Shown: piece after piece, positions 45,539 to 54,560 of the stretch
Position numbering within the stretch: the stretch's first letter is position 1
Layout: each line of letters opens with the position of its first letter
Assembly: GCF_003675855.1 (NCBI RefSeq)
Contig: NZ_RCIH01000002.1
Span: 257,654-321,653, forward strand
Direction of reading: 5' to 3'
DNA from: Halostella salina
GTDB lineage: Archaea > Halobacteriota > Halobacteria > Halobacteriales > Natronoarchaeaceae
DNA length: 64,000 nt
Translations under genes and position numbers: made by a program
Notes under the pieces: generated by a model
Seen by the model: the letters and a program-made list of their open reading frames with translations, nothing else
The model's database searches: none
Told to the model about the DNA's origin: nothing

Positions 45539-47041
45539 ATGACTACCGCGGACGCGTCCGGTCGGGACGTCCTCTTCGTCGTGATGGACACGGTGCGGAA
45601 GGACCACCTGTCCGTCTACGGCTACGACCGCCCGACGACGCCCGGACTCGAGGCGTTCGCCGAGGAGGCGGCGGTGTACGAACAGGCAGTCGCGCCGGCA
45701 CCGTGGACCCTCCCCGTCCACGCCTCGATGTTCACGGGCCGGTACCCCAGCGACCACGGGGCGAATCAGGAGAACCCGTACCTCGAAGGGTCGGCGACGC
45801 TCGCCGAGTCGCTGTCGGCCACGCACGAGAGCGCCTGTTACTCCTCGAACGCCTGGATCACGCCGTACACCCACCTCACCGACGGGTTCGACGACCAGGA
45901 CAACTTCTTCCAGGTGATGCCCGGCGAGTTCCTGAGCGGCCCGCTGGCGAAGGCCTGGAAGACGATGAACGACAACGAGCGCCTCCGGAAGGCCGCCGAC
46001 TGGCTCGTCAGCCTCGGCAACAAGGCCCACGAACACTTCGCCAGCGGCGGCGGCTCGGACTCCAAGACGCCGCAGGTGATCGACCGCACGCAGGAGTTCG
46101 TCGACGGCGTCGACGAGGACGAGAACTTCTTCGCGTTCGTCAACCTGATGGACGCCCACCTCCCGTACCACCCGCCCGAGGAGTACCAGGCGGAGTTCGC
46201 GCCGGGCGTCGACTCGACGGACGTGTGCCAGAACTCCAAGGAGTACAACTGCGGCGCGCGCGACATCGACGACGACGAGTGGGGGGACATCCGCGGGCTG
46301 TACGACGCCGAGATCCGACACGTCGACGCCGAACTCCGCCGACTGTTCGACTGGCTCCAGGCCGAGGGTCGCTGGGAGGACACGATGGTCGTCGTCTGTG
46401 CCGACCACGGCGAACTCCACGGCGAACACGACCTGTACGGCCACGAGTTCTGTATCTACGATCCCCTGGTCAACGTGCCGCTCATGCTGAAACACCCGGA
46501 CGTCGACCCCGGCCGGTACGAGAAGCAGGTCGAACTGATCGACCTGTACCACACCGTGCTCGACCACGCCGGCGTCGACCCGAACGCCCCGGACGCCGTC
46601 TCGCTCGACGACCAGCGGTCCCTGCTCTCCGACGACTACCGCGGGTTCGACGACGGCGAGTTCGCGTTCGTCGAGTACTCCCGCCCGGTCGTCGAGCTGA
46701 AACAGCTCGAAGAGAAGGCAAGCGCCGCGGGGATCACGCTCGACGAGGACTCCCGGTTCTACTCGCGGATGCGTGCGGGACGGCGACCCGACGCCAAGTA
46801 CATCCGAAACGAGCGGATCGACGACGAGGCCTACCGGATCGACGAGGACCCCGGCGAAACGGAGAACGTTCTCGGTGCCGACGACGAGGCCGTCGCCGAG
46901 GTCAAGGCGGCGCTGGGGCGGTTCGAGGACGACGGCAGCGGTCCCTGGGAGGGCGACGCCGCCGGCACCGACGAAGCCGTCCTCGACGACATGGACGAGG
47001 ACGCGAAGGAACGCCTGCAGGACCTCGGCTACATCGACTGA
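45539..47041 (+). CDS. Alkaline phosphatase/sulfatase-fold enzyme with Thr nucleophile
   Basis: The 500-residue cytoplasmic-type protein has the sulfatase fold: metal ligands near the start (VLFVVMDTVR, Asp17) and the ADHGELHGEHD motif (Asp289-His290) later. In the active-site segment APWTLPVHASMFTGRYPSDHG, sulfatases have Cys or Ser (which becomes formylglycine); this protein has Thr57. That matches the phosphotransferase/phosphodiesterase branch (as in LtaS or EptA-type enzymes) more than true sulfatases. I therefore do not call it a sulfatase. No signal peptide is seen. The next gene, a flippase-like membrane protein, follows after 1 nt, so the two are probably coupled. Confidence 0.8.
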   Translation: MTTADASGRDVLFVVMDTVRKDHLSVYGYDRPTTPGLEAFAEEAAVYEQAVAPAPWTLPVHASMFTGRYPSDHGANQENPYLEGSATLAESLSATHESACYSSNAWITPYTHLTDGFDDQDNFFQVMPGEFLSGPLAKAWKTMNDNERLRKAADWLVSLGNKAHEHFASGGGSDSKTPQVIDRTQEFVDGVDEDENFFAFVNLMDAHLPYHPPEEYQAEFAPGVDSTDVCQNSKEYNCGARDIDDDEWGDIRGLYDAEIRHVDAELRRLFDWLQAEGRWEDTMVVVCADHGELHGEHDLYGHEFCIYDPLVNVPLMLKHPDVDPGRYEKQVELIDLYHTVLDHAGVDPNAPDAVSLDDQRSLLSDDYRGFDDGEFAFVEYSRPVVELKQLEEKASAAGITLDEDSRFYSRMRAGRRPDAKYIRNERIDDEAYRIDEDPGETENVLGADDEAVAEVKAALGRFEDDGSGPWEGDAAGTDEAVLDDMDEDAKERLQDLGYID

Positions 47042-47042
47042 C

Positions 47043-48077
47043 GTGACTGACGCTACCGGCTCAGTCGACCTGTCGGACGCGTTCGACCGGCGGACGGTGG
47101 TGAAGATAGCCGTCGGGTTCGCCGTGGCCGTCGTGCTCGTCTACCTCCTTGCGGTCGCCGTCGGCTGGGAGCGGACTCTGGCGCAGCTTCGCGGGGCGGA
47201 GCTTCGATGGATCGCCGCCGGCTGTCTCTCGACGCTGTTCTGTCTCGCCGCCTGGGGGAAGGCGTGGCAGATCGTGCTCCGCGAAGGCGGCATCGACGTG
47301 CCGTACCGGAAGCTCGTGGTGACGTACTTCGCCGCGACGTTCGCCAACTACGTGACGCCGCTCGGACAGGCCGGCGGCGAGCCGTTCATCGCCTACGTCC
47401 TCTCGAAGGACACCGACGCCAACTACGAGCAGAGCCTCGCCAGCGTCGTCACCGCCGACCTGCTGAACCTGCTCCCCTTCTTCAACTTCGCCGCGGTCGG
47501 TCTCGGCTACCTGCTCCTCGGATCACAACTCACGGCGACCGCCGCCGACCTGGCGGTGGGGCTCGCCGCGCTGGCGGTCGGCATCCCGGCGCTCGTCGTC
47601 ACGGGGTGGCAGTACCGGCAGCGAGTGGAGGCGCTCGTCCTGCGACTCGTCGACCCGCTTTCCCGGCTGACCGACCGGATCTCCGTCGAGGGCGTTCGCG
47701 CGCGGATCGACCGCTTCTACGAGTCGGTCGGCCGGATCACGTCGTCACCGCGGGCGCTCCTGACCGCGACGGGCTTTGCGTACGTCGGCTGGGTGTTCTT
47801 CGCGCTCCCGCTGTACTTCTCCGGGCTGGCGCTCGACCTGCCGGTGCCGCTGTTGCTCGTCTTCTTCGTCGTTCCGGCGAGCACGCTCGCCGGGATGGTG
47901 CCGACGCCGGGCGGGCTCGCCGCCGTCGAGGGGGCGCTCGTCGGCCTCGTCGTCGCGCTGACGGCGCTTTCGGCCGCCGACGGGCTGGCCATCGCGACGG
48001 TGTACCGGATCGCGAGCTACTGGTTCGCGCTCGCGGTCGGCGGGGTCGCCGCGCTCTGGGTGCTCGCCCGCGTTTAA
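47043..48077 (+). CDS. Flippase-like (AglD/LPG-synthase TM domain) membrane protein
   Basis: The 344-residue protein has eight or nine hydrophobic segments of the UPF0104 / lysylphosphatidylglycerol-synthase transmembrane family, including GKAWQIVLREGG, TYFAATFANYVTPLGQAGGEPF, and PTPGGLAAVEGALVGLVVAL with its Pro-Gly pair. AglD-type relatives act in protein glycosylation or lipid flipping. The GTG start at 47043 comes 1 nt after the stop of the sulfatase-fold gene, so the two are translated together. That suggests a shared lipid- or glycan-linked phosphate substrate; this is inference. Confidence 0.8.
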   Translation: MTDATGSVDLSDAFDRRTVVKIAVGFAVAVVLVYLLAVAVGWERTLAQLRGAELRWIAAGCLSTLFCLAAWGKAWQIVLREGGIDVPYRKLVVTYFAATFANYVTPLGQAGGEPFIAYVLSKDTDANYEQSLASVVTADLLNLLPFFNFAAVGLGYLLLGSQLTATAADLAVGLAALAVGIPALVVTGWQYRQRVEALVLRLVDPLSRLTDRISVEGVRARIDRFYESVGRITSSPRALLTATGFAYVGWVFFALPLYFSGLALDLPVPLLLVFFVVPASTLAGMVPTPGGLAAVEGALVGLVVALTALSAADGLAIATVYRIASYWFALAVGGVAALWVLARV

Positions 48078-49535: not shown

Positions 49536-52500
49536 TCACATGAAGTCCGCGATGCCAGTCTGCTTGTTTTTGTCGTTCTCGAAGATGCTCTCAAGTGATT
49601 TTTCGAGCACCTCCAGCCGCTGTTTCGTGTAGTCGCGGGTGCCGTACTCCTCGGCGACCTGGATCGCGGTGTCCATGTACTTGTTCACCGACCCCTGGTG
49701 GACGGTGAGGTTCACGTCGCCGCCACACTCCCGGCAGTCGCCCGACAGCGGCATCCGGCGGTACTTCTCGCCGCAGTCGAGACAGCGCGTCTCCTGCCGG
49801 GAGAACGCCCGGAGGTTCCCGATGAGGTCCGGCAGGAAGTGGAACTCGATGACGCGCTCGGCCACGTCCGTCTCGTCGACGGCCCGGAGCTTCCGGGACA
49901 GCTCCAGCTGGGCGTCCATCTTGTCCATCATCGAGCCGAGCGTCTTGTACGCCGACAGGTCCGGCCCCATCGCCAGGTCGGTCGTGTCGTGGGTGTGGTC
50001 GAACCCGGCGTACTCCCGGTCGGTGCCGAGGGTGTCCTCGGCTATCTCCACGTCGACCTCGCCGGGGTCGGCCATCTCGCGGGTCGCCTCGTAGAACTCC
50101 CTGGAGTACTGCGAGACCACGTCCATGTTGTGGGCCTCGTCGTCGATCTCCGAAGGGTCGATGCGTGAGGACATGACCAGCGGCGCGTCCATCTGCCCGC
50201 CGCGCTGGTCGGGCAGGTACGACTTGCTGAAGTTGAGCAGGCCGTCGAGCAACAGCATCACGCAGTCTTCGTCGCCGTCGCACTGCTTCTGCGAGGTGTC
50301 GTTCGCTATCAACGAGTGTGTCCCTTCGACGGTGAGACAGTACGTGTGGTCGGTGTCGGCCTCGACGTACTCGACGTCGGTGACTTCGTCGACCAGATAC
50401 TCTCCACTCCCCCCGTCGAAGACGCGCCGTCCCAGGGGTTTGATCGCTTCGACCTGTGTGGTCAGTCGGTTCTGCTTTCGCGACAGGTGGAAGCCTACCT
50501 TTTCGGCGAACCGGACGGCGTCCGACGAGGAGACGTGAAGCACGTACGACTTCGCCGACATCGGAACGTCGCTCTCGTAGAACTCGGGGAAGTTCCCGCT
50601 GAGTGGAACCGGATCCGAGGTTCTGACGCGCGCCGAGATCCCCAGCCGGGTGAGTAGCGCGAGCATGTCTTCCTTCAGCGTCCGACTTATTGTCGTTGCC
50701 GAAACCTTCAGCGAGTCTTTTTCCACGGTGCCATCGCCGCTGAAGTATCCGCTGAGGTACGCGGCGACGATATTGTCGGGGGCATCGAAGATACATTCTG
50801 GAACGCGTTTATTCGCAGCGCCCGTTCCACAGTCGAGCACCGTCTCGAAGAACAGTCGCGGTAACCGTCCCGAGACGGTGACTTTGTACTCGTTTTCGCG
50901 GTACGGTTCGACCCCGAGTCTGGCCCGAAACGTGTCGACGAAGAATTCCCGTGCTTCCGTTTCGACCCCGGAGACGGTCGTCTGATGGATCGTGCCTTTG
51001 GGTGTTGCCTGCTCACGAGTGAACCCCTCCGCGGCGAAGTATCCTAAGAGCGTGGCGAGGTCCGCATCGAGATCGACGATCCTGTCGATTTCGGCGGTGT
51101 CCCGCTTCATCCCAAGGGTGACATCGTCCGGGACACACTCGGAGACAGCGGCCGGTGACCCGAGCAGGTCGATAAGTAGCGACGCCGGGAAACTTCCTCG
51201 ATAGACGTAATTACTCAACGCCTTCTTCGTGAGACCGAGGAATTCGGCAGTGCTCTTCAGCGGATAGAACTCCCCGTCCCAGTGGTCCGCGAGTTCTTCT
51301 GTGAAAAGGTCGTAGAGTTCCTCTTTGTCCAACCCCTTCACCATGAGTGACTCGTGGGGAACCTCGTCGCTGGTGAGGAACTCTTCGAGCAGGTCGAATC
51401 GAACATCCGAACCGGGCACGTCTACCTCCGCCGGAGTCACCAGCGAATCGGACGACGTAATCTCGCTTGCTCGCTTTGCCGCGAGTCCGTCCTCATCGAA
51501 GACATGCACATCGTGGTCCGGCGTGACAGTGATCTCCCGACCGCTGCGAGTTTCGATCTCGACGAGGTGGTCGGGAGAGCGGTGTTTCGACAACGCCTCG
51601 ACCGGTTTCTGCACTATCTCTCCGTCCTCGTCCAGTGACGGAACACGTACGTCGCCGTCTAACTCCTGCACGAGCGTTCCGAAGTCGTCCACATCCGGAT
51701 CGTGGAGCCGGTTCTCCACGAGTTCACGGATCGCCTCGTAGTGCCACTGTCCTGCCTCGTCCTCGTACCAGACCTTCGTTTCGGGATGGAAGCAGTTCCG
51801 CCGCTTCGAGGCGTGGAAGAACGGATGCGCGTACCCCACCGCCGCGCTGGTGAAGCCGATCACGCGGCCCACGACGGCCGCGCTCGTGTGGGGGGCCATC
51901 CCGAACACCAGTTCGCCGACGAGGTCGTCGCGCTCGTCCAGTTCGTAGTAGGGGTCGAGGTCGTAGAACTGCGCCAGGAGGTCGTCGACGAAGTCGGCGG
52001 TCTTCAGGAGGTGTTCGGCCGCACCGTCCGAGAGGACGACGTCCTGCACCTTCAGTTCGACCAGCTGGTCGTCGTGCTGGAGCGGGTCGCCGTGGATGTC
52101 CTCGTCGTAGCCCAGTTGGCGGAACTGGTCGACGGTGACGTCGAGTTCGGCGGGGCGGACCGAGGTGACCGGGAGGTCCGTCATGTCGTAGCGGACGGTG
52201 CCGTCCTTGAACGCGGAGACGCCGTGTTTCGACCGGAGGATCCCCTTGTCGACCGCTTCGGGCGTCTTGTTCGTCGAGGTGAGCCCCTTGACGCCTTTGA
52301 GGATGTCGAAGGCGTTCTCGCGCTCGCCGACGCGTTCCAGGGCCTCGCGGTACTCGGCGTGAACGTCGACGACTCGGGACTCGACGGAGGTGCCGTCGAC
52401 CTCGCAGCGCGAGCAGTGGACGCGCCCGGCCTCGTCGGGCTCCAGCTCCTGCTCACAGCTCGGACACTCGTAGTGCGGTTCGGTGTGCGCGCCGCAGTCG

Positions 52501-54560
52501 GGGCACTTCGGGCGGAACGTCTCGCCGCCGCAGCCGGGACACTCGCGGCGGCCGACCTCCACCTCGACCTCGCCGGGGGTGTCGGACATGGAGTCGGCGT
52601 GGCCCGCGGCGGCGGCCACGTCGCGCTGGCTCCCGCCGGCCTCGCCGATGGGGAAGAGGGTGTGGACGGCGGGGCTGAGTTCGCGGGACTCCGACTTCTC
52701 CGGGCGGCCCATGCGGTTGCCGATACGCGTGGGCGCGCGCTCGCGGACGGTGAACGGCGCGACCTCGTTGACCGCCTTCACCGCGTTGTCCCAGTCGCGG
52801 GCCTCGGGCGAGAGGTCGTCCCACGTCCGGTCGAGGGTTTCGGTGAGGCCGAGCGAGCGGACGAGCGGCCGCCAGACCGGGACGGTTACCGCGTCCGATT
52901 CCTGTCGGTGTTCGACGAGCAGCGCCTCCAGCGCCGCCCGGACCGGGTCGGCGTTCTCGACGAGCAGGTCGCCGTCGACGACCTCGCCGGCGGCGACGGC
53001 GTCGGCGAGCGCCTCGAACTCCGCGACCGTGAGGTCGTGCCAGAGATAGGTGTACGCCGGGTGGAGCGGGGCGTCGTACTCGGTCGCCCATTCGACCGCC
53101 TCCTCGGGGTCGGGGTCCTCCAGGTCGACGCGGACCGAGTCGGCCATCGCCTGCACGTCGGCGGCGGTGTCCTCGAACTCCTGGACCCACCACTCGAACG
53201 CGTAGGCGGCGGGAGCAAGGGGGTGGTTGTTCTCGACGAACTCGCCGTAGTTGACGAGGTACTCGCCGAGGTCGAGTATCTTCTCGACGCCGTTCCGGAT
53301 CTCGAGGGCCTCCTCGGGGTCGTCGATCCGGCGCACGTCGCCGTTGGCGAGGCGGACGGTCGGCCCCTCGATTGAGTCGACCGGGACGACGCCCGCGGCC
53401 TTGCCGGGGCGCTCGGTCTTGATCTGCGTCCCGGTGGCGAGGAAATCGTCGACGAGGTGCATCGTCGCCGGGTGGACGCCGGCGGTCGCGAACCCGTGGT
53501 TGCGCGCGCGGCCGTAGCGCAGGCGGAAGCCGCCGGTTTCGCTCGGGTGTGAGAAGACCGGGCGGCCAGCGATGAGGTCGCGCAGGAACTTCCAGGACTC
53601 GTCGACGCGGGGCGGGCCGTCCGGCTCGTTGGTGCCACCGTCGTCGCCCTCGGCGGCCTCGCCGTCCGACTCGTCATCGGAGTCCCCGTCGGCGTCGCCG
53701 CCGTCGTCACCTTCCTCGTTCCCGATGGTGCCGTCGATGAGGTCCTGGAGCCACGGCCAGTCGACCTCGTCGAGGTTGCGCGTGTAGCGCTGGATCTTCG
53801 GGGCCTTCAGCGCGATCCCCTCGGCGAGGACGAGACACATCCCGCCGCGGGGGTTGTTCGTGTCGACCCGTTCGAGGTCGCGGAAGCCGGACACCTCCTC
53901 GTCGCCGGTCGGCTCCCCGTCCAGCATGATTGGGACGTGCTCGGCGATGAACTTCGACTCCTTGTCCTTCGGGGAGTACTGGAGCCCGGTCTCGTCGTCG
54001 TACAGCGACACCTCCTCGGCGTAGCGCTCGACCTCGTCGTCCCGGGCCCTGTACTCGTCGACGCCGATGAGCGCGCGGGTGTAGTCCGCGACAAGCACCG
54101 AGAGGGCCTGCGCGGTCCCGCCGGCCGAGCGGATCGGGCCGGCGTAGTACACGTTGACGAACTCCGTGCCGTCGTCGTTCTCGAGCAGTTCGACGCGGTC
54201 GATCCCCTCGATGGGGGCGGCGACGACGCCCTCGGTGAGCAGCGCGACGGCGGTGCGGACAGCGCCCTCGACCTTGCCGGCCTTCGTCTCGTAGTCGCCG
54301 ACGCGGCCCTCCGCGAAGTCCTTCGCGAGTTCGAGCGCCGCCTCCTCGCGGCTCATCTCGCCCTCCAGTTCGCGCACGCGCTCGGCCACGCCGTCGATCC
54401 CGAGGATGTTCTCGACGCGGTCGGCCATGTCCTTGGCGACCGGGATTTCGACCTTGGTCTCGGGGTCGTGGCCCTGTTCGCGGGCCGCGCGGGCGACTTC
54501 GAACGCGTCGTCGAGGCCGGATTCGAGCCGTTCGAAGTACCGTTCGTCCTCGGGCCGCAT
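49536..54560 (-). CDS. polC: DNA polymerase D large subunit (DP2), intein-containing precursor
   Basis: The 1674-residue precursor is the catalytic subunit of the archaeal replicative PolD. Removing the 504-residue intein (923-1426) leaves a 1170-residue polymerase. Seen: the N-terminal DP2 region (YYAGPIRSAGGTAQALSVLVADYTRALIG), a long acidic haloarchaeal insertion near residues 275-320, zinc motifs (CPGCGG...CPDCG, CPSCEQE...CSRC), the catalytic CDGDEDC (Asp1428, Asp1430) and a C-terminal zinc ribbon (CLDCGEKYRRMPLSGDCREC) before the DP1-binding end. The ATG at 54560 abuts the stop of the upstream PPC-domain gene. The proofreading DP1 subunit gene is not in the window. Confidence 0.97.
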   Translation of the reverse strand: MRPEDERYFERLESGLDDAFEVARAAREQGHDPETKVEIPVAKDMADRVENILGIDGVAERVRELEGEMSREEAALELAKDFAEGRVGDYETKAGKVEGAVRTAVALLTEGVVAAPIEGIDRVELLENDDGTEFVNVYYAGPIRSAGGTAQALSVLVADYTRALIGVDEYRARDDEVERYAEEVSLYDDETGLQYSPKDKESKFIAEHVPIMLDGEPTGDEEVSGFRDLERVDTNNPRGGMCLVLAEGIALKAPKIQRYTRNLDEVDWPWLQDLIDGTIGNEEGDDGGDADGDSDDESDGEAAEGDDGGTNEPDGPPRVDESWKFLRDLIAGRPVFSHPSETGGFRLRYGRARNHGFATAGVHPATMHLVDDFLATGTQIKTERPGKAAGVVPVDSIEGPTVRLANGDVRRIDDPEEALEIRNGVEKILDLGEYLVNYGEFVENNHPLAPAAYAFEWWVQEFEDTAADVQAMADSVRVDLEDPDPEEAVEWATEYDAPLHPAYTYLWHDLTVAEFEALADAVAAGEVVDGDLLVENADPVRAALEALLVEHRQESDAVTVPVWRPLVRSLGLTETLDRTWDDLSPEARDWDNAVKAVNEVAPFTVRERAPTRIGNRMGRPEKSESRELSPAVHTLFPIGEAGGSQRDVAAAAGHADSMSDTPGEVEVEVGRRECPGCGGETFRPKCPDCGAHTEPHYECPSCEQELEPDEAGRVHCSRCEVDGTSVESRVVDVHAEYREALERVGERENAFDILKGVKGLTSTNKTPEAVDKGILRSKHGVSAFKDGTVRYDMTDLPVTSVRPAELDVTVDQFRQLGYDEDIHGDPLQHDDQLVELKVQDVVLSDGAAEHLLKTADFVDDLLAQFYDLDPYYELDERDDLVGELVFGMAPHTSAAVVGRVIGFTSAAVGYAHPFFHASKRRNCFHPETKVWYEDEAGQWHYEAIRELVENRLHDPDVDDFGTLVQELDGDVRVPSLDEDGEIVQKPVEALSKHRSPDHLVEIETRSGREITVTPDHDVHVFDEDGLAAKRASEITSSDSLVTPAEVDVPGSDVRFDLLEEFLTSDEVPHESLMVKGLDKEELYDLFTEELADHWDGEFYPLKSTAEFLGLTKKALSNYVYRGSFPASLLIDLLGSPAAVSECVPDDVTLGMKRDTAEIDRIVDLDADLATLLGYFAAEGFTREQATPKGTIHQTTVSGVETEAREFFVDTFRARLGVEPYRENEYKVTVSGRLPRLFFETVLDCGTGAANKRVPECIFDAPDNIVAAYLSGYFSGDGTVEKDSLKVSATTISRTLKEDMLALLTRLGISARVRTSDPVPLSGNFPEFYESDVPMSAKSYVLHVSSSDAVRFAEKVGFHLSRKQNRLTTQVEAIKPLGRRVFDGGSGEYLVDEVTDVEYVEADTDHTYCLTVEGTHSLIANDTSQKQCDGDEDCVMLLLDGLLNFSKSYLPDQRGGQMDAPLVMSSRIDPSEIDDEAHNMDVVSQYSREFYEATREMADPGEVDVEIAEDTLGTDREYAGFDHTHDTTDLAMGPDLSAYKTLGSMMDKMDAQLELSRKLRAVDETDVAERVIEFHFLPDLIGNLRAFSRQETRCLDCGEKYRRMPLSGDCRECGGDVNLTVHQGSVNKYMDTAIQVAEEYGTRDYTKQRLEVLEKSLESIFENDKNKQTGIADFM
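50283..51794 (-). other. Intein in the PolD large subunit (504 residues)
   Basis: The insertion starts with Cys923 (RRN/CFHPETKVWYEDEAG) and ends with Gln1426 before the extein Cys1427 (QKQ/CDGDED). It has the N-terminal splicing block (CFHPETKV), the block-B-like TPDHDVHVF, two LAGLIDADG homing-endonuclease motifs (LATLLGYFAAEGF and YLSGYFSGDGTV) and the C-terminal block (TYCLTVEGTHSLIANDTSQ). Codon use is less GC-rich than the exteins. The last residue is Gln, not the usual Asn, as described for the Pyrococcus abyssi PolII intein. Confidence 0.93.

What the first reader, a model, noticed from the sequence alone, without database searches (positions are those of the whole stretch)
45539..48077. 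Sulfatase-fold enzyme with Thr in place of Cys/Ser, coupled to a flippase-like protein
The active-site segment reads WTLPVHASMFTGR; the residue that becomes formylglycine in sulfatases is Thr57. Such Thr-nucleophile enzymes transfer phospho-groups to lipids or glycans. One nucleotide separates it from a UPF0104/AglD-type membrane protein. The pair could modify a lipid-linked glycan or phospholipid head group. Automatic annotation as sulfatase would mislead.
Basis: partly seen in the sequence, partly recalled or inferred. Interest (0 to 1): 0.5.

Follow-up and report, generated by a model that had tools for sequence, protein, structure and literature searches.

The report
Sulfatase-like enzyme paired with flippase
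In a salt-loving archaeon, a protein that looks like a sulfate-removing enzyme but lacks that enzyme's key residue sits beside a lipid-flipping membrane protein, and it may well be one of the missing enzymes that add sulfate to this group's membrane sugar-lipids.

Summary
In detail: a 500-aa sulfatase-fold protein with Thr57 at the formylglycine place, one nucleotide before an LPG_synthase_TM (flippase-like) gene, in a Halostella-like haloarchaeon. The enzyme is a single-copy orthologue in 213 of 391 Halobacteria genomes. A flippase-like gene lies beside it at 49 of 80 loci, in three arrangements that use three separate flippase lineages. At 21 of 80 loci it lies with two glycolipid-type glycosyltransferases and a second alkaline-phosphatase-superfamily protein (CL9). 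Phospho-transfer is not the best fit. Two proven Halobacterium salinarum N-glycan sulfotransferases (Agl30, Agl31; PMC11980604) have this fold; their inferred genes resemble CL9 and this protein, with Ser at the Thr57 place in inferred Agl31. Presence also follows sulfated glycolipid in the few named cases: this gene without CL9 in Haloferax (S-DGD), both in Haloterrigena turkmenica (S-DGD, 2S-DGD), neither in Haloarcula marismortui and H. hispanica (congener H. argentinensis makes no S-DGD). Best reading: a cytosolic sulfotransferase for diglycosyl archaeol (mannose-6-sulfate), the neighbour moving the lipid. Activity, donor and topology are untested. Halorubrum makes an S-DGD without this gene; 31 of 80 loci lack the neighbour.

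The parts
45539..47041 (+). Sulfatase-fold (alkaline phosphatase superfamily) enzyme, 500 aa, here called SULF; no hydrophobic stretch that would mark a signal peptide or membrane span
   Evidence: PF00884 148.9 bits; model pTM 0.83 with S1-sulfatase fold, VIA Z 31.4 to 6hr5; highest 19-residue hydropathy 0.81
45707..45709 (+). Codon of Thr57, at the place of the formylglycine Cys
   Evidence: Thr in 80 of 80 orthologues
45587..45589 (+). Codon of Asp17, predicted metal ligand (followed by Thr18)
   Evidence: invariant in 17 and in 45 aligned orthologues
46403..46408 (+). Codons of Asp289-His290, predicted metal ligands (Asp-His as in phosphonate monoester hydrolases)
46442..46444 (+). Codon of His302, at or beside the place of the catalytic Lys of sulfatases; invariant
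   Evidence: aligned to Lys in 6pt4, one place off in 4upk
47043..48077 (+). LPG_synthase_TM / UPF0104 flippase-like membrane protein, 344 aa, GTG start, arrangement-A lineage
   Evidence: PF03706 150.1 bits, TIGR00374 117.3 bits; A clade 100/100 in the tree

Best explanation
[quoted passage not shown] A divalent metal held by Asp17, Asp289 and His290 would activate Thr57; Thr57 takes the sulfuryl group from a donor (PAPS is the obvious guess) and passes it to the sugar hydroxyl. The neighbouring LPG_synthase_TM protein then carries the (sulfo)glycolipid to the outer leaflet. Shown here: fold, residue replacement, orthology, recurrent coupling, glycolipid-type gene neighbourhood in one group, co-absence with the flippase gene in part of Haloarcula. 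Shown in print: sulfatase-fold haloarchaeal relatives are sulfotransferases. Inferred: substrate, sulfate position, donor, enzyme-bound intermediate, direction of flipping.
For: (1) Precedent: VNG1056C/Agl30 and VNG1057C/Agl31, alkaline-phosphatase-like proteins, sulfate the Hbt. salinarum N-glycan, and also the Haloferax glycan when expressed there (PMC11980604). In a genome that is probably Hbt. salinarum (G063) the inferred Agl31 gene matches this family (hhalign E 5.8e-21 over 292 columns, 26% identity; Ser at Thr57; His61, His207, Asp289, His290, His302 kept), and the inferred Agl30 gene matches CL9 (29%, E 7e-31). (2) Neighbours: 21 of 80 loci hold SULF with CL9 and two GT4 enzymes whose best NCBIfam matches are LTA glycolipid-anchor IagA/BgsA (271.7 bits, cut-off 460) and alpha-monoglucosyldiacylglycerol synthase, then GlcNAc-PG synthase; the flippase there also matches GlcN_PG_flip (all below cut-off). 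(3) Distribution: 15 Haloferax-genus (g38) genomes with SULF have no CL9, 0 of 15; three Haloferax strains make S-DGD but no 2S-DGD. SULF with CL9 in Haloterrigena turkmenica (G202), which makes both. Neither in Ha. marismortui and Ha. hispanica, while Ha. argentinensis lacks S-DGD. Halomicroarcula rubra F13, Haloferax profundi and Hfx. marisrubri have SULF and S-DGD-1. (4) In one survey S-DGD (mannose-6-sulfate) was seen in the one Halolamina strain, not in the one Haloarcula or the six Halorubrum strains (PMC8160830); Halolamina salifodinae has SULF, Halorubrum (g7) does not. (5) Within the Haloarcula genus (32 genomes) SULF is in 16; the A-type flippase is in 14 of those 16 and in 0 of the 16 without.
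Against: No activity, donor or product was tested. Halorubrum makes an S-DGD yet 6 of 6 Halorubrum-genus (g7) genomes looked at lack SULF; I explain this by CL9, which is itself a guess. The seven-strain lipid table is small, and S-Gly-AHH and PE show the same absence in Ha. argentinensis, so S-DGD is not the only lipid that fits. Natrinema gari has S-DGD but no 2S-DGD, although 35 of 35 SULF-carrying genomes of the Ht. turkmenica family outside g78 and g82 carry CL9. Alkaliphilic species are often reported without glycolipids, while SULF is common in that family. The CL9 counts come from genomes chosen because they carry SULF (Haloferax, Natrialbaceae) or belong to Haloarcula, not from a random draw. 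No flippase gene was found in the fetched stretch at 31 of 80 loci. In g44 SULF lies beside AglB, which would fit an N-glycan substrate. SULF is only about 25% identical to the inferred Agl31, and the two do not group together in the tree. The naming of G063 and of its Agl30/31 genes is inferred. The residue set also fits LtaS/EptA-type phosphotransferases.
Confidence: 0.56

Rival explanations
1. Phospho-transferase of the LtaS/EptA kind: Thr57 takes phosphatidyl or glycerophosphate from a phospholipid and puts it on the glycolipid, e.g. to make glycocardiolipin (S-DGD-PA, DGD-PA, TGD-PA). This is nearest to the first reader's view.
For: Thr at the nucleophile place and Asp-His metal ligands; weak partial NCBIfam matches to phosphoethanolamine transferases and LtaS (36.6 and 24.9 bits against cut-offs 500 and 970); flippase partner.
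Against: Ha. argentinensis makes TGD-PA and DGD-PA, though the two genus members I could name, Ha. marismortui and Ha. hispanica, lack the gene; Ht. turkmenica has the gene and no S-DGD-PA or DGD-PA is marked for it. No hydrophobic stretch for a membrane anchor or export, whereas LtaS and EptA work outside the membrane (recalled).
Confidence: 0.15
2. Sulfotransferase for an N-glycan or another lipid-linked glycan (dolichol-phosphate-linked sugars, S-Gly-AHH), not for diglycosyl archaeol.
For: Agl30/Agl31 act on the N-glycan; in g44 SULF lies beside AglB and a PopT-like polyprenyl-phosphate transporter; DedA/UptA-like gene in the Natrialbaceae cluster; S-Gly-AHH has the same presence pattern as S-DGD in seven strains.
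Against: The agl clusters of the window genome and of G063 carry their own, different paralogues; AglB is in 14 of 14 genomes searched, with or without SULF, and near SULF in only 2 of 160 loci; the linked GT4s match glycolipid families best.
Confidence: 0.18
3. A hydrolase (sulfatase or phosphodiesterase) that turns over the same lipids.
For: S1-sulfatase fold, Z about 31; Asp-Asp-His metal set as in phosphonate monoester hydrolases.
Against: No Cys/Ser for formylglycine in 80 of 80; His61 in place of the CxPxR Arg and no Lys at His302/Glu303; probably cytosolic, and linked to biosynthetic rather than catabolic genes in the clustered group.
Confidence: 0.06

Closest known systems
Agl31 (VNG1057C) and Agl30 (VNG1056C) of Halobacterium salinarum, N-glycan sulfotransferases (PMC11980604)
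   Same: Same superfamily fold in a haloarchaeon; Agl31 is cytosolic; inferred Agl31 keeps the His61, His207, Asp289, His290 and His302 equivalents; the cluster partner CL9 resembles inferred Agl30.
   Different: About 25% identity, Ser instead of Thr, apart in the tree; Agl30/31 sit in the aglB cluster (PMC11980604), SULF mostly does not; SULF is coupled to LPG_synthase_TM genes.
S1-family sulfatases and phosphonate monoester hydrolases (4upl, 4upk, 6pt4, 6hr5)
   Same: Fold (Z 27-31) and Asp-Asp-His metal pattern of the phosphonate hydrolases.
   Different: No formylglycine Cys/Ser, no CxPxR Arg, no catalytic Lys.
LtaS / EptA / MCR phosphotransferases
   Same: Thr nucleophile, metal Asp-His, conserved His (their residues recalled).
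   Different: No membrane domain or export; partial, weak profile matches.
LPG_synthase_TM family (MprF flippase domain, GlcN-PG flippase, AglD C-terminal part)
   Same: P0002 is covered nearly end to end (22-333) by PF03706.
   Different: No synthetase or glycosyltransferase domain attached; substrate unknown.

Membership tests
Formylglycine (S1, PF00884) sulfatases | Sulfatase fold and PF00884 profile | tested here: met
   148.9 bits against 25; VIA Z 31.4, rmsd 3.0, 347 aligned, 6hr5
Formylglycine (S1, PF00884) sulfatases | Cys or Ser in CxPxR that becomes formylglycine, with Arg | tested here: not met
   Thr57 and His61 at these places; Thr in 80 of 80 orthologues
Formylglycine (S1, PF00884) sulfatases | Sulfate-ester hydrolysis | not testable with these tools
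   needs enzyme assay
LtaS/EptA/MCR phosphotransferases | Thr nucleophile with Asp-His metal ligands | tested here: met
   Asp17, Thr57, Asp289, His290 invariant; that these define the family is recalled
LtaS/EptA/MCR phosphotransferases | N-terminal membrane domain, catalytic domain outside the cell | tested here: not met
   no 19-residue stretch above 0.81 hydropathy; first strand already at residue 11
LtaS/EptA/MCR phosphotransferases | Curated profile cut-off reached | tested here: not met
   36.6 of 500 (NF028537), 24.9 of 970 (NF053595)
Haloarchaeal sulfatase-fold sulfotransferases (Agl30/Agl31 kind) | Homology to a shown sulfotransferase | tested here: met
   hhalign probability 99.4, E 5.8e-21 to inferred Agl31; identity of that gene is inferred
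Haloarchaeal sulfatase-fold sulfotransferases (Agl30/Agl31 kind) | Grouping with Agl31 in a tree | tested here: inconclusive
   27-row tree, weak deep forks and long branches; SULF and Agl31 apart
Haloarchaeal sulfatase-fold sulfotransferases (Agl30/Agl31 kind) | Sulfate transfer to a sugar | not testable with these tools
   needs deletion plus lipid and glycan mass spectrometry
LPG_synthase_TM / TIGR00374 flippase-like (P0002) | Profile over cut-off | tested here: met
   PF03706 150.1 of 33.4; TIGR00374 117.3 of 43.2
LPG_synthase_TM / TIGR00374 flippase-like (P0002) | Lipid flipping | not testable with these tools
   needs a flipping assay

The most novel reading that the evidence does not exclude
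Haloarchaeal sulfoglycolipids are made by a two-enzyme position code of sulfatase-fold Ser/Thr sulfotransferases: this enzyme sulfates mannose O-6, CL9 sulfates O-2, both together give S2-DGD (mannose-2,6-disulfate), CL9 alone gives the Halorubrum lipid, neither gives unsulfated lipid. Each is tied to LPG_synthase_TM flippases, of which three separate lineages have come to lie beside the first enzyme.
Probability: 0.33. Interest if true: 0.8.

Novelty: new variant of a known kind. Interest (0 to 1): 0.62.

Why it matters
The sulfated glycolipids of haloarchaea are abundant in several genera and are used as taxonomic markers; three searches of the held library found no paper that joins them to genes (most subscription papers are not held). 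If right, one single-copy gene, present in about half of the class (213 of 391), can be deleted in Haloferax and read out by one mass peak. It would also extend the idea that a hydrolase fold has been turned into a sulfotransferase, unlike the usual P-loop sulfotransferases (recalled), and would correct the 'sulfatase' label on more than two hundred archaeal proteins.

Tried and rejected
Considered and set aside: PGS synthesis (Haloferax profundi and Hfx. marisrubri have SULF and no PGS; a group of Halorubrum strains has PGS, while Halorubrum genomes lack SULF). PGP-Me synthesis (in all taxa, while SULF is in 213 of 391). Glycocardiolipin synthesis (see rivals). N-glycosylation as the general role (AglB does not follow SULF). 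A simple 'all SULF genes sit with a flippase' claim: false for 31 of 80 loci.

Led nowhere or only in part: the agl regions fetched of Halobacterium sp. DL1 (G033) and G066 held no clear Agl30/31 pair. Three paper searches for genes of the sulfated glycolipids found no paper. The search for Halostella lipids gave nothing usable in its ten listed papers, so the window organism's own lipids are unknown. My simple gene caller assigned no SULF call at 4 of 80 loci (L051, L088, L109, L110); SULF was found there by tblastn, and the counts use tblastn. Of the 49 partners one (L034) is only a short fragment match. One named locus counted as type A (L171) has its flippase 1.9 kb away; the 49 of 80 count is from the unnamed loci only. 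For the 80 named loci one search gives 36 with and 44 without.

Recalled, from no call: metal ligands of LtaS/EptA/MCR and that these act outside the cell; that S-DGD-3 of Halorubrum carries a 2-sulfate; PAPS as donor; the match of contig lengths to Halovivax ruber, Halalkalicoccus jeotgali and Natronomonas moolapensis (not used as evidence).

Confidence went from 0.57 to 0.56, the N-glycan rival from 0.17 to 0.18.
Full report
What is there. The finding is correct in its sequence details. ORF 45539-47041:+ encodes 500 aa (P0001, here SULF) and ORF 47043-48077:+ encodes 344 aa (P0002), with one base between. P0001 is a sulfatase-fold protein by profile (PF00884, 148.9 bits) and P0002 is LPG_synthase_TM over nearly its whole length (PF03706, 150.1 bits). 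The window lies in a Halostella-like genome: the best relatives in the named collection are Halostella pelagica and a Halobacteriales MAG, both at 86%; nearer records may be left out by that tool.

Active site. In alignments with solved relatives, Thr57 falls on the Cys of 4upl and 4upk and of 6pt4, and His61 on the Arg of CxPxR; Asp17, Asp289 and His290 fall on Asp, Asp and His of 4upk; His302 falls on a Lys in 6pt4 and one place off it in 4upk. Asp17, Thr57, His61, His207, Asp289, His290 and His302 are invariant in 17 and in 45 aligned orthologues, and Thr is at place 57 in 80 of 80. The AlphaFold model (45 sequences, pLDDT 78, pTM 0.83) has the S1-sulfatase fold: VIA Z 31.4 to 6hr5, 29.5 to 6hhm and 5g2u. 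6hhm and 5g2u are also the best structural matches that PMC11980604 reports for VNG1057C and VNG1056C. P0001 has no hydrophobic stretch, so it is probably cytosolic.

Distribution. At E <= 1e-80, 213 of 391 Halobacteria genomes hold it, one copy each. Looser relatives are many (52 of 59 relatives have something at E <= 1e-20); full-length paralogues score about 230 bits or less, against about 500 and more for orthologues, leaving out fragments.

The partner. An LPG_synthase_TM gene lies beside SULF in 49 of 80, with gaps of 0-322 bases: 21 downstream on the same strand (A; one, L034, only a fragment), 3 downstream convergent (B), 25 upstream divergent (C); 31 have none in the fetched stretch. 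In a 70-row tree the A partners (20 rows) and the B partners (3 rows) form clades with support 100/100, and the C partners (24 rows, with three CL9-linked ones) a clade with 100/98; paralogues that are not beside SULF fall between them. So different flippase paralogues have come to lie beside the same enzyme, which is stronger than simple inheritance of a gene pair. Within the Haloarcula genus (32 genomes) SULF is in 16; the A-type partner (300 bits or more; one copy with an in-frame stop) is in 14 of these 16, the two misses being 80% and 58% complete assemblies, and in 0 of the 16 without SULF (best 175 bits). That may be a single evolutionary event.

The neighbourhood. In Natrialbaceae and a few others SULF sits in a cluster: ASST-like protein, DedA/UptA-like protein, flippase, SULF, a 286-aa second superfamily protein (CL9), and two GT4 enzymes. 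CL9 and both GT4s are in the fetched stretch at 21 of 80 loci. One GT4 matches best the LTA glycolipid-anchor IagA/BgsA family, the other alpha-monoglucosyldiacylglycerol synthase and then N-acetylglucosaminyl-PG synthase; the flippase also matches GlcN-PG flippase (all below curated cut-offs, one example genome). Homologues of the two GT4s at E <= 1e-50 are in 72 and 74 of 78 genomes, with or without SULF, so they look like a general pair. The Halorubrum genus (g7; two of six genomes named) keeps GT4, CL9 and flippase without SULF, with about 107 bases between CL9 and the flippase in L238. AglB is near SULF in only 2 of 160 loci, both g44.

Known precedent. PMC11980604 (outline with abstract, sections 17, 21, 23 and passages seen) shows by deletion and by expression in Haloferax that VNG1056C (Agl30, membrane) and VNG1057C (Agl31, cytosolic), alkaline-phosphatase-like proteins of the aglB cluster, are sulfotransferases. 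Genome G063 is probably Hbt. salinarum: two contig pieces match Hbt. salinarum plasmids at 100% identity, over 62% and 52% of the query, and in one case also plasmids of unnamed Halobacterium species. On one contig of it two adjacent genes fit Agl30 (325 aa, hydrophobic at about 21-39, as the paper states) and Agl31 (459 aa, no hydrophobic stretch). This identification is inferred, not by accession. Inferred Agl31 aligns with the SULF family over 292 columns (E 5.8e-21), keeps the His/Asp/His set and has Ser at Thr57. Inferred Agl30 aligns with CL9 (29%, E 7e-31). The window genome's own agl cluster, on contig C3, holds further Ser/Thr paralogues. So Ser/Thr at this place is compatible with sulfate transfer, and the two proteins of the glycolipid cluster each have a probable shown sulfotransferase among their relatives. 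SULF and Agl31 do not group together in a 27-row tree with weak deep forks.

Genes against lipids. Yao et al. 2023 (PMC10704169; abstract, passages and the section with its table seen) mark S-DGD in three Haloferax, Ht. turkmenica, Natrialba asiatica and Natrinema gari, not in Ha. argentinensis; 2S-DGD only in Ht. turkmenica and Na. asiatica. Ht. turkmenica (G202) has both. Ha. marismortui (G177) and Ha. hispanica (G115) have neither. CL9 is absent from 24 of 24 Haloarcula-genus genomes searched (16 without SULF, 8 with). It is present in 35 of 35 SULF-carrying genomes of the Ht. turkmenica family (f7) outside genera g78 and g82, one by a partial match, and in 0 of 4 within those genera. In an earlier draw from f7 outside those genera it was in 13 of 14, the miss being a genome without SULF too. 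S2-DGD-1 is mannose-2,6-disulfate (PMC8530250, passages). S-DGD is mannose-6-sulfate in PMC8160830 (passages), which reports it in its one Halolamina strain but not in its one Haloarcula or six Halorubrum strains. Named SULF carriers with reported S-DGD-1 include Halomicroarcula rubra F13 (PMC8600319, passages) and Haloferax profundi and Hfx. marisrubri (PMC7599478, passages), all. The 2-sulfate of the Halorubrum lipid S-DGD-3 is from memory.

Against the reading. Halorubrum makes an S-DGD (PMC2739508, PMC5890160, passages) without SULF. Natrinema gari has no 2S-DGD although its family usually carries both genes. S-Gly-AHH and PE share the seven-strain pattern. Alkaliphiles are often reported without glycolipids. 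In genus g44 SULF lies beside AglB and a PopT-like gene, which would fit a lipid-linked glycan. Nothing here measures activity.

Verdict. The protein is not a formylglycine sulfatase. A sulfotransferase of sulfatase fold acting on diglycosyl archaeol, with a dedicated flippase, is the best-supported reading (0.56); an N-glycan or other lipid-linked substrate and a phospho-transferase remain possible.

Noticed in passing
G000:C8:226356-228372 (L237:6354-8394): The window's own genome has a second pair: CL9-type protein (81% to L081) divergent from a C-type flippase (70%). If the reading is right, this species should make the disulfated lipid.
   Followed up: partly
L235:3354-10177 (G000:C3): The genome's agl cluster beside AglB holds four further alkaline-phosphatase-superfamily-like proteins, most with Ser or Thr at or near the nucleophile place, candidates for glycan sulfotransferases.
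   Followed up: partly
L263:1125-2555:-: Third such protein on the probable Hbt. salinarum agl contig (Thr at the nucleophile place), perhaps VNG1063H, for which PMC11980604 found no role in the N-glycan.
   Followed up: no
L079:1834-8587: Gene order AglB, PopT-like polyprenyl-phosphate transporter, GT4, SULF on one strand in genus g44.
   Followed up: partly
L081:12020-13432:-: ASST-like (arylsulfotransferase PF05935/PF14269) gene near the cluster in many Natrialbaceae; role unknown.
   Followed up: no
49536-54560: The DNA polymerase D large subunit ORF (1674 aa) seems to contain an intein-like insert with lower G+C around 50-52 kb; seen by eye and in the composition table only.
   Followed up: no
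L177:9001-10512: Actinarchaeum halophilum carries SULF at 64% identity with a DedA-like match in the same stretch and no flippase gene found there.
   Followed up: no
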